42,382 nt of DNA from a bacterium. Lineage in GTDB: Bacteria; Myxococcota_A; UBA9160; SZUA-336. The notes under the pieces were generated by a model, which was not told where the DNA came from, did no database searches, and was given only the letters and a program-made list of their open reading frames with translations. Location of the stretch: contig JAAELY010000079.1 in the NCBI GenBank assembly GCA_024226335.1, forward strand, positions 1 to 42,382, read 5' to 3'. Made by a program: the position numbers and the translations under genes. Shown here one piece after another: positions 38,207 through 42,382 of the stretch. Position 1 is the stretch's first letter. Every line of letters starts with the position of its first letter.

Positions 38207-39001
38207 TCAGAGGCCTTTCTCCAGTCTTCGCACACTGAAGATGTTCTCGTCGAGATCCTGGTTGAATTTCGTCTTGTTGTTCTTCAAGACCGTCTTGTGC
38301 AGGGTCTTCTTGCCCTTCTTCGTGGTCATGTGGATCTCGGTCGGGACCCAGATATCGTCGATTTCCTCGAGCGACTTCACGTCCATGTAACGCAGGCGGC
38401 CGCCCTTTTTCAGCCAGCCGACCGAGCGGATCACCACGAAGTTGTCCTGGCGAACGAATACGACCGATTTGGTGTAGCCCGTGCGATCGATCTCCTTCTC
38501 GGTCCGGGGTGTGGACTGGATCTGCCACACCTTCACGCCTTTGACTTCGGTCTCCTTCATCAGTTCGTAGTCGTAGCGTTCGAGTTCGCGCGAACTCATG
38601 TCGGAGTAGTTGAAATCGCTGCCCATGAAGCTACCGCTCTGATCGCTCGCGGCGATGCGCTTGGTCTTCTTCAGTGCAGGCATGTAGAGCCACTGGTCGT
38701 CGTCGCGATCGATTTCGTCGTAGTCGTAGGTGAGAAATCCCGTGTCTTTGACGTCCGCTGGGACGAGGAAGAACATGATCGACTGGGTGTCTTCGCCCTG
38801 GTCGCGGCGAAACGAACGCAAGACTCGTCTGCGCTCCTTGCCATTCTTGTCGATCAGGATCATTTCCATTTCCTGGACCACGGAATCGCCATCGTCCCGG
38901 TCTTCGGCCTTCTGCATGATCTCGCGGGCCGTCAGAGCGCTCGCATGGAGCGGCACGAGCAAGAGCAGCGCTGCCAGGATTGGGATGAAACGTAGGTGCA
39001 T
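38207..39001 (-). CDS. LolA-fold outer-membrane lipoprotein-sorting-like protein
   Basis: 264 residues. It has a signal peptide (MHLRFIPILAALLLLVPLHASA), then a LolA/LolB-like half-barrel: LTAREIMQKAEDRDDGDSVVQEMEMILIDKNGKERRRVLRSFRRDQGEDTQSIMFFLVPADVKDTGFLTYDYDE, with an alternating pattern of strands and QWLYMPALKKTKRI. These proteins carry lipids or lipoproteins through the periplasm and are frequently encoded with MMPL/RND permeases. GAGG lies 9 nt before the ATG. It sits between the permease gene (41 nt) and the barrel gene (14 nt). The long open frame extending upstream to 40288 is only an overlap with the permease gene and is not used. Role as shuttle between permease and barrel is inferred. 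Confidence 0.9.
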   Translation of the reverse strand: MHLRFIPILAALLLLVPLHASALTAREIMQKAEDRDDGDSVVQEMEMILIDKNGKERRRVLRSFRRDQGEDTQSIMFFLVPADVKDTGFLTYDYDEIDRDDDQWLYMPALKKTKRIAASDQSGSFMGSDFNYSDMSSRELERYDYELMKETEVKGVKVWQIQSTPRTEKEIDRTGYTKSVVFVRQDNFVVIRSVGWLKKGGRLRYMDVKSLEEIDDIWVPTEIHMTTKKGKKTLHKTVLKNNKTKFNQDLDENIFSVRRLEKGL

Positions 39002-39042: not shown

Positions 39043-41469
39043 TCAGTCCTGCGGCGTCAACCTCTTTTCCCGTCCCAGCGTCAGAGCCATGAGTGCCGGG
39101 GCGAGGATAACATCGAGAATGAAAGCCGCCGCGATGCAGAAGCTGATCAACGCCCCGAAGATGAAGAGGTTCCCCATGCTGGAGAGCATATAGACGGAGA
39201 ACCCCGCCGAGAGCACGATCGAAGTGACCGCCATCGCCTTTCCGGTGGTTTCCAGTGTCTTGCGCGTCGCTTGTTGTGGATCGCCGGTTTCGTCGAAGTA
39301 GCGCCGGTAGTTGTGAATGAAATGGATCGTATCGTCGACGGCCAGGCCGATCGCGATTCCACCGATCATCAAGGTGAACGTGTCGATTGAGAGGCCGAGT
39401 ACACCCATCAGACCGAGCGTCGTGATGATCGGTGCGAGGTTCGGCACCATGCTCGCCAGGCCCGCCCTCAGGTTGCCGATCAAGAGCATCATCAAGGGAG
39501 TGATGATCGCCAGGGCCATGACATAACTGGCGGCCATGCTGTGCATGACGGCGTAGATCGTCCCCGACATCATCTTCATCAAGCCCGTTACCTGAACCTG
39601 AGCACGTTCTCCCAGTCTTGCTTCGAACACCTCTTGAATGCTCTTCACGAAGGGTACGTAGTTGATTGCATCCTGGTACGGCACCCGAATCGTAAAGCGA
39701 CTGGTGCTGAAGACGGAGTCGACGAGGTCTTCCAGATCGTCCGAGCCGCTGTTCTCGAACAGCAGGAGTTCCTGTGCGATGAGTTGTCGCTCTTCTGGAA
39801 TGCTGTAGTAGTCGCTGCGGTTCTCGTTGAGTGCCTGGTTGATTTCCTTGAGCACGTCGGTCACCGACAGGGTCTTGCCGACTTCGAAGCCGACTCCCAG
39901 GCCCGCTTGCACGGTATCGGTATTGAGGGCGTCGAGGTCGCGTAGGATCTGAGGATCGTGCAAGCCGTTCTCGCGCCCGGTGTCGACCAGAACCTCCAGA
40001 CTCATGCTGCCCTTGAAGTCCCGGTCCACGATCTCCGTGCTTTTGCGCACCATATGGTCTTCGGGGAACCAACCGAGAAAGTCGTGCGAGAAGTGCAGTG
40101 TCCGGGCGCTCACGAGACCCCCGACGATCAACACGGCGGCGGCCGCCATCATCCAGCGGGGATTTCGGACGGAGAAATCTCCGGTTGCGATCAGAACGCG
40201 TTCCAGGAACCCGCCCCGCTGGACCAAAGTACTCTTGCGCGCTTTCAGGGGAGTCAGCGATAGCAGCACCGGGAGCATCACCAGGCAATAGACGAGTCCG
40301 AGCAGGATGCCGATCGGAGCGAAGATCCCCACATGCGAGATGGGCGCGAGTTCGGCCACGCTAAAGCTCAGCATACCGCCCGCCGTCGTCAGGCCCGTCA
40401 TCAGGATCGCGAGTCCGGAGTGACCAAGCGCGTGGACGATCGCCTCGTCTCGAGGGCGACCCTGGTCGATTTCGAGATAGGTGACCGTCAACAGGTGCAC
40501 TGCAGCGCCGATGCCCACGGCGAGCAGGAAGCTGGGCAGAATCTGGGTCGGGATATTGATGGAAACTCCCACCCACGCCATGATGCCCAGCGTCGATACA
40601 ATCGAGAGAATGACGACGAGTAGCGTCAATACGACAGCGGACACGCGCCTGAACAGCGAGAAAAGCACGACGCAGATGATCCCAATCATCACGACCAGGA
40701 ACTTCTGCATATCGGTCCCCATGCTCTTGACCATTCCGTCTGTAATCACGGGGGTGCCGGAGCCCACCAGCTTGAAGTCGGGTTTCTGGTGGCGCTCCAT
40801 GACCGCCAGGAGGGCATTCACCATTTCCTCGGCTTCCGCATTGCCCACCATCTCTTCAGCGGACGGTTCGTTGGCGGATTCCTCGTCGAACCCGCTGAGC
40901 GCATCGTCGGCCTCGTTGGACTTGTAGAGGCTGCCGCGGGCTACGACCGTCGACAGACGCCCGTCATTCGATAGCACCAGGTTCTTGTAAAGAGGATTGG
41001 CGAGTGCGCGCGCGCGAATAGCCTCGCGTTGGGCTTCTGTTTCGGGCCAGTCCTCGAAAAGGTCCTCGACGATCAATTCTTCTTCGTTCCCGAGTGTGGA
41101 CCGCGCGTTGATCAGGCTGCTGACTTCATCCAGGTACGGGACGTTGTCTTCCAGGTCCTTGTGAAACGCTCGCAATCGCTCGAGCGACTGCTCAGAGAAC
41201 GGATCCGGTGTGTCGACGACGATCAACGTGTAGTCGTCCTTGCCGAATTGCGTGCGGAAATCCTCCCACGCCAGGCGGTCGGGGGCGTCGGGATGCAGGA
41301 AACTCTCGGGCGACGCATCGAACTCCAGCGTTGGAAGCTGCGATGCGCACACGGAGGCGAGCAACAAGGAAAGTCCGAGAGTCAGCCAACGCCGGCGCAG
41401 GATCATCCGTCCAAAGTCTTCGAACCCTCTTTCGATGCGCGCGCGCAGCGGTACCTCAGCTTCAGCCAT
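39043..41469 (-). CDS. MMPL/RND-family inner-membrane transporter
   Basis: 808 residues arranged as two repeats, each with one TM segment, a large periplasmic domain and five further TM segments. The first TM is about 30-45 (WLTLGLSLLLASV); the SSD-like core follows (FLVVMIGIICVVLFSLFRRVSAVVLTLLVVILSIVSTLGIMAWVGVSINIPTQILPSFLLAVGIGAAVHLLTV). The second repeat ends with GGIAIGLAVDDTIHFIHNYRRYFDETGDPQQA, the GDDT/H motif of MMPL and HpnN/Patched-type transporters. These move lipids or other hydrophobic molecules by the proton gradient. AAAAAGGA is 8 nt before the ATG, which overlaps the tetR stop by 8 bases. It has no MFP or TolC partner nearby, as usual for MMPL proteins. Confidence 0.92.
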   Translation of the reverse strand: MAEAEVPLRARIERGFEDFGRMILRRRWLTLGLSLLLASVCASQLPTLEFDASPESFLHPDAPDRLAWEDFRTQFGKDDYTLIVVDTPDPFSEQSLERLRAFHKDLEDNVPYLDEVSSLINARSTLGNEEELIVEDLFEDWPETEAQREAIRARALANPLYKNLVLSNDGRLSTVVARGSLYKSNEADDALSGFDEESANEPSAEEMVGNAEAEEMVNALLAVMERHQKPDFKLVGSGTPVITDGMVKSMGTDMQKFLVVMIGIICVVLFSLFRRVSAVVLTLLVVILSIVSTLGIMAWVGVSINIPTQILPSFLLAVGIGAAVHLLTVTYLEIDQGRPRDEAIVHALGHSGLAILMTGLTTAGGMLSFSVAELAPISHVGIFAPIGILLGLVYCLVMLPVLLSLTPLKARKSTLVQRGGFLERVLIATGDFSVRNPRWMMAAAAVLIVGGLVSARTLHFSHDFLGWFPEDHMVRKSTEIVDRDFKGSMSLEVLVDTGRENGLHDPQILRDLDALNTDTVQAGLGVGFEVGKTLSVTDVLKEINQALNENRSDYYSIPEERQLIAQELLLFENSGSDDLEDLVDSVFSTSRFTIRVPYQDAINYVPFVKSIQEVFEARLGERAQVQVTGLMKMMSGTIYAVMHSMAASYVMALAIITPLMMLLIGNLRAGLASMVPNLAPIITTLGLMGVLGLSIDTFTLMIGGIAIGLAVDDTIHFIHNYRRYFDETGDPQQATRKTLETTGKAMAVTSIVLSAGFSVYMLSSMGNLFIFGALISFCIAAAFILDVILAPALMALTLGREKRLTPQD

Positions 41470-42151
41470 GCTCGGAGTCCTTTTTCGGTGGCTCGCGGCG
41501 GATGCCTCGAAGAAAGAGGTCGGCCACGAAATCGGCGTAACGATTCCTGAAATCGGGATCGAACGGGTCTTCATCGAAAACGCGTCGAAATAACGGTGCG
41601 GCGAGCAGGAAGAAATTGATCATGCCCATGAGAGCCGGAACCAGAAAGCGTGGGTCCAGTCTCTCGAAGGCGCCTGTGCTCTGACCTTCGCTGAGCAGAC
41701 TGGACAGGTTGCTGACATTGGGCGCGATGAAATTCGACGCGACACTGTCGGTGATCTCGCTGTCGGGAAGGAGCACCTGCTCCATGAACAGGCGCGGAGC
41801 GTATCGGTCTTCAGCCAGGGTCTCTAGGGTCAGATGGATGAAGCGTCGCAGTCGTTCTTCGGGGGGGCCGTCCGTCCGCAAGGCTTCCGCCAGGCGATCG
41901 CCCACGCGCTCGGCGATCTGTTCGATCACGGCGCGCAGCAGACCCTCTTTTCCGCCGAAATAGTAGTTGGCCAGGGTTGGACGGACCCCGGCTCGCTCTG
42001 CGACGGCCCTCAAGGTGAATCCGGACTGTCCCTGTTCGGCGAGTAGCGCGCGTGCGGCGTCGAGCAGGGCCTGGCGCCCTTGCTGGGTGCTGGCTCCCGG
42101 CGGTCGGCCAGGTCCCTTCTTTCTCGCTCTGCTCGGTGTCTCGCTAGTCAC
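41462..42151 (-). CDS. TetR/AcrR-family repressor of the MMPL operon
   Basis: 229 residues. The N-terminal AT-hook-like KKGPGRPPG is followed by a TetR helix-turn-helix at about 26-75 (QALLDAARALLAEQGQSGFTLRAVAERAGVRPTLANYYFGGKEGLLRAVI). The rest is the ligand-binding dimer domain with a TetR_C-like motif (MGMINFFLLAAPLFRR). It is the first gene of the operon and probably represses it, with the ligand being a substrate of the permease. The start is GTG with no Shine-Dalgarno; a promoter -10 ends 7 nt before it, so the message may be leaderless. The stop overlaps the permease start by 8 bases. Confidence 0.92.
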   Translation of the reverse strand: MTSETPSRARKKGPGRPPGASTQQGRQALLDAARALLAEQGQSGFTLRAVAERAGVRPTLANYYFGGKEGLLRAVIEQIAERVGDRLAEALRTDGPPEERLRRFIHLTLETLAEDRYAPRLFMEQVLLPDSEITDSVASNFIAPNVSNLSSLLSEGQSTGAFERLDPRFLVPALMGMINFFLLAAPLFRRVFDEDPFDPDFRNRYADFVADLFLRGIRREPPKKDSEHG

Positions 42152-42155
42152 GAAT

Positions 42156-42175
42156 TTTATTGTACAGACAATAAA
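42156..42175. promoter_or_regulatory. TetR operator palindrome over the operon promoter
   Basis: TTTATTGTACAGACAATAAA: two perfect 8-base arms with a 4-base centre, 4 nt upstream of the tetR GTG. It overlaps the predicted -10 (minus-strand TACAAT, 42164-42159) and part of the spacer, an ideal place for repression. A palindrome of this size next to a TetR gene is the usual autoregulatory operator. Confidence 0.8.
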
Positions 42176-42186
42176 TAAAGAATCAA
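42159..42186 (-). promoter_or_regulatory. Predicted promoter of the tetR-MMPL operon
   Basis: On the minus strand TTGATT (-35) is followed after 16 bases by TACAAT (-10), close to the sigma-70 consensus, in an A/T-rich patch. The expected start of transcription, about 7 nt after the -10, falls at or next to the GTG start codon. Confidence 0.6.
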
Positions 42187-42382
42187 CAGCGGATTCGAGC
42201 GGGCGGCCCGTTGCTCCGCCGTCAGCTAGGGAACCTCTGCGCAGGGAGGCTGCGGCTGCGAAGCGCGATGCATCCGCCTGCGCTGCGTCGCGCGACCCTC
42301 TGCAGATCTACGGATCTGCGATCGGATCACGCTTCTTGCTCAGGCGGCGACTCCCGCTTCTCGCTCGATTCCTCCCTGTGCA
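42187..42382. other. End of window upstream of the tetR operon
   Basis: No gene is supported in this terminal stretch of about 195 bases. It contains an inverted repeat GCAGATC/GATCTGC (42302-42319, 4-nt loop) and G/C-rich pieces. The inverted repeat has no U-tract and its role is unclear. Confidence 0.35.

What the first reader, a model, noticed from the sequence alone, without database searches (positions are those of the whole stretch)
42149..42186. Operator over the -10 and a probably leaderless repressor message
TTGATT-16-TACAAT places the transcription start at or just before the GTG, with no Shine-Dalgarno. A perfect 8-bp-arm palindrome overlaps the -10. Leaderless GTG starts are uncommon among proteobacteria and could keep repressor synthesis low.
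Basis: partly seen in the sequence, partly recalled or inferred. Interest (0 to 1): 0.5.

Follow-up and report, generated by a model that had tools for sequence, protein, structure and literature searches.

The report
Leaderless self-repressing efflux operon switch
A repressor gene that heads a membrane-transporter operon appears to have its promoter, its own operator and its start codon packed into about 38 bases so that the message begins at the start codon, an arrangement already known from a few other repressors and here found kept in related bacteria.

Summary
The GTG is the only standard start codon between the upstream in-frame stop and the HTH. The TetR gene heads a TetR > RND/MMPL > LolA-like > DUF1302 operon.

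Comparison supports the leaderless reading. In the 9 TetR-MMPL operons with an intact 5' end (8 genera), the best -10-like hexamer ends 6-8 nt before the TetR start; 8 of 9 score at least 4 bits and none of 2000 shuffles reaches the mean; none has a Shine-Dalgarno of 4 nt or more. The window's transporter start does (AAGGA) and overlaps the repressor stop.

The likely mechanism is autorepression by TetR on its own -10, with a poorly translated leaderless repressor and a better translated pump. This is the published AcuR architecture, so it is a new member of a known kind. The rarity claim needs correcting: leaderless genes are predicted to be common in some delta-proteobacterial genomes, and many related TetR genes in this class and in gammaproteobacteria show the same layout. 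No transcript or binding data exist here.

The parts
42181..42186 (-). -35-like hexamer TTGATT
   Evidence: 4 of 6 to TTGACA, 16 nt from the -10
42159..42164 (-). -10-like hexamer TACAAT
   Evidence: ends 7 nt before the GTG; the best -10-like hexamer lies 6-8 nt before the start in 9 of 9 orthologous operons
42156..42175 (.). candidate TetR operator, TTTATTGT-CTGT-ACAATAAA (minus-strand sense), covering the -10 and part of the spacer
   Evidence: the only site in window and own genome; a dyad centred 11-15 nt before the start in 8 of 9 orthologous operons, weak in two of these
42149..42151 (-). GTG start codon and inferred transcription start (leaderless)
   Evidence: the only ATG/GTG/TTG between the upstream in-frame stop and the HTH; no SD
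41462..42151 (-). TetR-family repressor gene (229 aa; TetR_N plus TetR_C_9/TetR_C_29)
   Evidence: Pfam; nearest solved chain 2qtq, a TetR-family regulator
41478..41482 (-). Shine-Dalgarno AAGGA, 8 nt before the transporter ATG
   Evidence: anti-SD duplex energy -5.3
39043..41469 (-). RND/MMPL transporter gene; its ATG overlaps the TetR stop (ATGGCTGA)
   Evidence: MMPL; best NCBIfam model is HAE3, below its cut-off; next to TetR in the 9 other operons found
38207..39001 (-). LolA-like periplasmic protein gene
   Evidence: LolA_like; start placed; same order in L033, L034, L036, L037
36798..38192 (-). DUF1302 outer-membrane protein gene
   Evidence: start placed; same order in L033, L036, L037

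Best explanation
This is the control region of a self-repressed transporter operon with a leaderless first gene. RNA polymerase uses TTGATT-16-TACAAT and starts at or within one base of the GTG. A TetR dimer binds the 20-bp dyad lying over the -10 and spacer and shuts the operon by excluding polymerase. The repressor, lacking leader and SD and using GTG, is made sparingly from its own message, while the overlapping transporter gene has its own SD and possibly termination-reinitiation. When a ligand, probably a transporter substrate, removes TetR, much pump and little repressor are made. Shown here: the sequence elements, the only possible standard start codon, the missing SD, the gene order and the conservation of the layout. 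Inferred: the exact +1, TetR binding, derepression by a ligand, and the low repressor yield.
For: Nine TetR-MMPL operons with an intact 5' end (window plus L033-L039 and L119; a tenth, L007, is cut by its contig end) have their best -10-like hexamer 6-8 nt before the start. 8 of 9 score at least 4 bits; mean 5.68 against a shuffled mean of 0.73, 0 of 2000 shuffles reaching it. The ninth, L035, scores 0.0 on the -10 but has TTGACA-17-TACATA-6-ATG. The joint -35/-10 score is 93.2 against a shuffled mean of 34.0 and maximum of 71.4 in 1000. No TetR start has an SD of 4 nt or more, 0 of 9. A dyad near the start exceeds shuffles (65 against 50.5, sd 2.7; 0 of 1000 reach it). 9 of 9 have a candidate transporter start overlapping the TetR stop. 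7 of 9 have only one ATG/GTG/TTG between the upstream stop and the HTH. The same layout with mapped leaderless transcript, operator mutations and low repressor translation is published for AcuR (PMC3017554).
Against: No transcript, binding or expression data exist for this organism. The spacing is 7 nt, so +1 could be one base upstream of the GTG. Leaderless GTG is a weak start in E. coli and was much reduced for acuR. The dyad is weak in L037 (5 of 10) and L038 (6 of 10), and in L119 the best one is centred 24 nt before the start, away from the -10. At the overlapping transporter start only 5 of 9 have an SD of 4 nt or more (window, L037, L038, L039, L119); L033, L034 and L035 have none by word match (L034 still pairs at -5.0 kcal/mol) and L036 only GGA, so the SD contrast is not uniform. 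One TetR start, L038, has GGA and -3.3 kcal/mol. I chose the orthologue starts; L036 and L037 have other candidates.
Confidence: 0.8

Rival explanations
1. The operon is transcribed from a promoter further upstream, giving a leader; the AT-rich palindrome is a TetR operator that merely resembles a -10, and the GTG is read from a leadered message without an SD.
For: The putative operators of this group are AT-rich and can look like promoters. The contig ends 231 bp upstream, so a distal promoter cannot be excluded. E. coli cecR, a distant relative, has a similar dyad that ends 13 nt before its ATG, further than here.
Against: The promoter scan found no other site up to the contig end. The -10 spacing of 6-8 nt recurs in operons of differing operator sequence, with a consensus TTGACA at 17 nt in L035. 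None of the 9 TetR starts has an SD of 4 nt or more.
Confidence: 0.13
2. The palindrome is bound by another regulator, or is not an operator, and the TetR acts elsewhere.
For: No binding data. The dyad is imperfect in some orthologous operons.
Against: It is the only such site in the genome, it lies on the promoter of the TetR gene itself, and AT-rich dyads with a similar position occur before most orthologues and before many more distant relatives of this TetR.
Confidence: 0.05
3. Chance: AT-rich intergenic DNA that happens to hold a palindrome and a -10-like word.
For: A+T is 71% in the 45 nt before the GTG against 30% further upstream, which raises chance matches.
Against: Dinucleotide shuffles of the same bases give a perfect 8-bp-arm repeat in 12 of 2000; the layout is conserved across 8 genera.
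Confidence: 0.02

Closest known systems
acuR-acuI-dddL operon of Rhodobacter sphaeroides (PMC3017554; passages plus sections 7, 8 and 13 read)
   Same: TetR gene first in the operon; -35 TTGATT (the same word) and a -10 so placed that the transcript starts at the start codon; no SD before the regulator but one before the next gene; 8-bp-arm inverted repeat over the promoter; autorepression.
   Different: AcuR operator TAATAGAC-n6-GTCTATTA against TTTATTGT-n4-ACAATAAA here; ATG against GTG; catabolic genes against a transporter; the window TetR scores 29.3 bits on the AcuR model, cut-off 247.
tetR of Tn1721 and lambda cI (cited as leaderless in PMC3017554 and PMC3293720, sections or passages seen; originals not read)
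   Same: Low-abundance repressors made from leaderless messages.
   Different: Divergent or phage arrangements (recalled), not first gene of a co-directional pump operon.
Mesorhizobium nreAXY (PMC12724321, listing and passages only)
   Same: Repressor-first efflux operon, leaderless transcript by 5' RACE, dyad operator between -35 and -10.
   Different: The repressor is CsoR/RcnR family and answers to nickel.
E. coli cecR-ybhGFSR
   Same: TetR-family gene first, its end overlapping the exporter genes; dyad CTTAATCA..TGATTAAG upstream.
   Different: In E. coli the dyad ends 13 nt before the ATG, against 4 nt here; the window TetR scores 23.5 bits on the CecR model, cut-off 365.
AmeABCD of Castellaniella defragrans (PMC6394551, passages only)
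   Same: HAE3-type RND pump grouped with a DUF1302 outer-membrane protein and a LolA-superfamily (DUF1329) periplasmic protein.
   Different: A second periplasmic protein (AmeC) that is not seen here; the word 'regulator' does not occur in the paper's main text.

Membership tests
Leaderless repressor-first operon (AcuR-like architecture) | -35/-10 placed so that +1 coincides with the start codon | tested here: met
   Sequence geometry only: 7 nt in the window, 6-8 nt in 9 of 9 operons
Leaderless repressor-first operon (AcuR-like architecture) | transcript 5' end mapped at the start codon | not testable with these tools
   needs RNA
Leaderless repressor-first operon (AcuR-like architecture) | no SD before the regulator, SD before the next gene | tested here: met
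   window: duplex 0 against -5.3; across the nine operons the transporter SD of 4 nt or more is present in 5 of 9
Leaderless repressor-first operon (AcuR-like architecture) | operator overlapping the promoter | tested here: inconclusive
   the palindrome 42156-42175 covers the -10; that it is bound by this TetR was not testable
TetR family | TetR_N HTH and a TetR C-terminal domain over Pfam cut-offs | tested here: met
   TetR_N 48.9 bits (cut-off 24), TetR_C_9 49.5 (cut-off 25.3)
AcuR (NCBIfam NF051457) | score over the curated cut-off | tested here: not met
   29.3 bits, cut-off 247
CecR (NCBIfam NF008587; Pfam CecR_C) | score over the curated cut-off | tested here: not met
   23.5 bits, cut-off 365; CecR_C 22.2, cut-off 24
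HAE3 RND transporter (TIGR00921), product of the next gene | score over the curated cut-off | tested here: not met
   201.2 bits, cut-off 351.9; Pfam MMPL is met (102.1, cut-off 20.5)

The most novel reading that the evidence does not exclude
Leaderless expression from an operator-filled promoter is an inherited trait of a TetR clade that heads efflux operons, kept from delta- to gammaproteobacteria although operator sequences and cargo pumps (MMPL, HlyD-like exporters) changed. That would make the start-codon-at-+1 layout a selected part of the switch, fixing a low repressor-to-pump ratio. Evidence: -10-like words (3.5 bits or more) at spacing 6-8 number 15 (0.75 expected from distant positions) in 30 same-class non-MMPL relatives and 28 (3.9 expected) in 35 mainly gammaproteobacterial relatives, but 5 (3.1 expected) in 32 more distant TetR genes. 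Shared ancestry of the sequences was not corrected for, many are Pseudomonas, and no tree was built.
Probability: 0.4. Interest if true: 0.5.

Novelty: new member of a known kind. Interest (0 to 1): 0.33.

Why it matters
It turns a single-site guess into a testable, conserved design: one short DNA segment serves as promoter, operator and translation start, and would set repressor low and transporter high from one message. If the layout is a clade trait, it gives a sequence rule for predicting TetR operators and correct start codons in efflux operons of uncultured bacteria, and a set of natural replicates for asking why several known repressors have leaderless messages.

Tried and rejected
A genome-wide regulon of this operator: rejected, only one site with up to 3 mismatches in the own genome as assembled. 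A later start codon: rejected, the next candidate is inside the HTH; upstream near-cognate codons ATA and ATT exist but were not pursued. Filing the TetR as AcuR or CecR: rejected on curated cut-offs. A first gene-calling attempt for the genome background was too strict (83 ORFs; 4 matches at spacing 6-8) and was replaced (169 ORFs). In one search my LolA query was in the wrong frame; one search repeats it correctly and only one search is used for LolA. (alignment of two upstream regions) was not used. Structure prediction, fold search and the RNA-family and RNA-model tools were not used: they do not bear on the 5' end. E. coli cecR was only read by eye; it shows the dyad but not the short distance to the ATG, which counts against a clade-wide layout that reaches E. 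coli.

Of 36 and 34 loci offered to the last two groups, 35 and 32 had a usable start. In one search, 2 of 69 HTH matches had no usable start (67 examined); one search used a stricter span and 65 genes. The relatives are a part only: one search kept the best 80 of 460, and searches gave loci for the best matches of 59 and 90 genomes.

Full report
What is there. The window is a whole contig of an assembly of 5.75 Mb in 556 contigs. The closest named relatives of the TetR gene come from MAGs titled 'Deltaproteobacteria bacterium' (the 7 best rows). Near the right end, on the minus strand, a TetR-family gene (42151-41462) is followed by an RND/MMPL transporter (41469-39043), a LolA-like protein (39001-38207) and a DUF1302 outer-membrane protein (38192-36798). 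The repeat occurs nowhere else in the assembled genome with up to 3 mismatches.

Is the GTG the start? The in-frame stretch upstream is 52 codons to a stop without ATG, GTG or TTG, and the next in-frame candidate is a TTG at codon 47, inside the HTH (HTH 29-75). The N-terminus aligns with those of four orthologues; the conserved PGRP begins 11-15 residues from the start in all five. There is no anti-SD pairing (0 kcal/mol) before the GTG, whereas the transporter ATG, which overlaps the TetR stop as ATGGCTGA, has AAGGA at 8 nt (-5.3).

Is the message leaderless? Ten operons with this TetR followed by the MMPL gene were found, the window's included, within capped searches. Nine keep the 5' end (window, L033-L039, L119; 9 genomes, 8 genera). 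In these the best -10-like hexamer at spacing 5-9 lies 6-8 nt before the start. 8 of 9 score at least 4 bits; the mean is 5.68 against 0.73 for dinucleotide shuffles, with 0 of 2000 shuffles as high. The ninth, L035, scores 0.0 on the -10 alone but has a perfect TTGACA 17 nt upstream. None has a Shine-Dalgarno of 4 nt or more; L038 has GGA. Across the nine, the joint promoter score exceeds all 1000 shuffles and the dyad score all 1000, though the dyad is weak in L037 and L038 and displaced in L119. In 7 of 9 the start is the only standard start codon before the HTH; L036 and L037 have alternatives, so those two placements are my choice. The transporter SD is not universal: at the overlapping start 5 of 9 have one of 4 nt or more (window, L037, L038, L039, L119), L036 has GGA, and L033, L034 and L035 have none by word match, although L034 pairs at -5.0 kcal/mol. 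9 of 9 have a candidate transporter start overlapping the TetR stop, so translational coupling may matter as much as the SD.

How unusual is it? In 65 TetR-type genes of the same genome, the window's included, -10-like words (at least 4 bits) at spacing 6-8 number 14 against 5.0 expected from positions 20-65; at 5 bits, 7 against 3.1. In 169 ORFs from 220 kb of the genome, again with the window's TetR among them, the figures are 13 against 6.2, and at 5 bits 10 against 3.3. So leaderless starts probably exist elsewhere in this genome, in a minority of genes. This agrees with a survey that predicted leaderless genes in 8 of 33 delta-proteobacterial genomes, averaging 15.8% in those 8 (PMC3160421, passages). 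For leaderless GTG it is fairer: in E. coli GTG is reported at under 10% of ATG activity, but in mycobacteria GTG does as well as ATG (PMC4633059, passages); the all-AUG leaderless set of Sinorhizobium was defined by AUG (PMC3616915, passages). Here 2 of the 9 operons use GTG (window and L119).

A wider pattern. Ten more distant TetR relatives were checked for the next gene: in 10 of 10 the next start overlaps the TetR stop, and the products read like lipoprotein or HlyD-like adaptors; the two tested hit HlyD-type models below their cut-offs. Many such relatives carry AT-rich palindromes of the TTAATTAA..TTAATTAA or TTAATCA..TGATTAA kind just before the start. Counting candidate starts at 3.5 bits, spacing 6-8 holds 15 matches against 0.75 expected in 30 same-class genes, 28 against 3.9 in 35 mainly gammaproteobacterial genes, and 5 against 3.1 in 32 further, mixed genes. 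By gene, 14 of 30, 25 of 35 and 5 of 32 have a match at spacing 5-9, while an SD of 4 nt or more is present at some candidate start in 8 of 30, 12 of 35 and 24 of 32. Relatedness was not corrected for. E. coli cecR does not show the short distance (dyad ends 13 nt before the ATG).

How it most likely works. The TetR dimer sits on the -10 and shuts the operon. On ligand release, polymerase starts at or next to the GTG; ribosomes start poorly on the leaderless GTG, so little repressor is made, while the transporter is read from its own SD and perhaps by reinitiation. The steps after the sequence anatomy are inferred. AcuR is the demonstrated precedent: 10 sequenced RACE clones start at the AUG, promoter mutations abolish expression, operator mutations make it constitutive, the acuR fusion gives about 7.5% of the acuI fusion, and a GTG version of its start is much weaker (PMC3017554, sections 7 and 8). 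The window TetR is not an AcuR or a CecR by curated cut-offs, so it works like AcuR without belonging to that family.

What the operon may do. An HAE3-type RND pump with DUF1302 and LolA-superfamily partners is known as AmeABCD, linked to monoterpene efflux (PMC6394551, passages). Export of a hydrophobic compound is a reasonable guess for the substrate and inducer; nothing here tests it. The RND gene's best NCBIfam model is HAE3 but below its cut-off. L039 has TetR-MMPL without detectable LolA or DUF1302 neighbours in the stretch fetched, and the contigs of L035, L038, L119 and L007 are too short to tell.

Verdict. The kind of system is known; what is added is that the layout is conserved in this TetR-MMPL lineage and apparently in a wider TetR group. 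My searches for 'leaderless' with TetR terms (25 of 45 papers listed, 9 of 9, 12 of 133) listed AcuR and NreA as the nearest repressor-first cases I recognised, and no title on this TetR-MMPL operon or on a leaderless CecR-like clade. Only titles, abstract openings and the papers named above were seen, and the searches cover only the open-licence library.

Noticed in passing
window 42302-42319: Second inverted repeat upstream, GCAGATC-TACG-GATCTGC, about 150 bp before the TetR start; 31 of 100 shuffles of the window also hold a match with up to 2 mismatches, so it may be chance or belong to a gene beyond the contig end.
   Followed up: partly
L053, L057, L134, L012 (upstream of the TetR start): TetR genes of gamma- and deltaproteobacteria with adaptor-like genes next have AT-rich palindromes a few bases before the start, the same kind of layout as the window.
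   Followed up: partly
own-genome loci, for example L177, L183, L190, L191, L203, L208, L213: Other TetR genes of the same genome with a -10-like word 6-8 nt before a start and no SD of 4 nt or more; candidates for further leaderless regulators, some expected by chance.
   Followed up: partly
L039: TetR-MMPL pair without LolA-like or DUF1302 neighbours in the fetched flank, unlike L033, L036 and L037.
   Followed up: no
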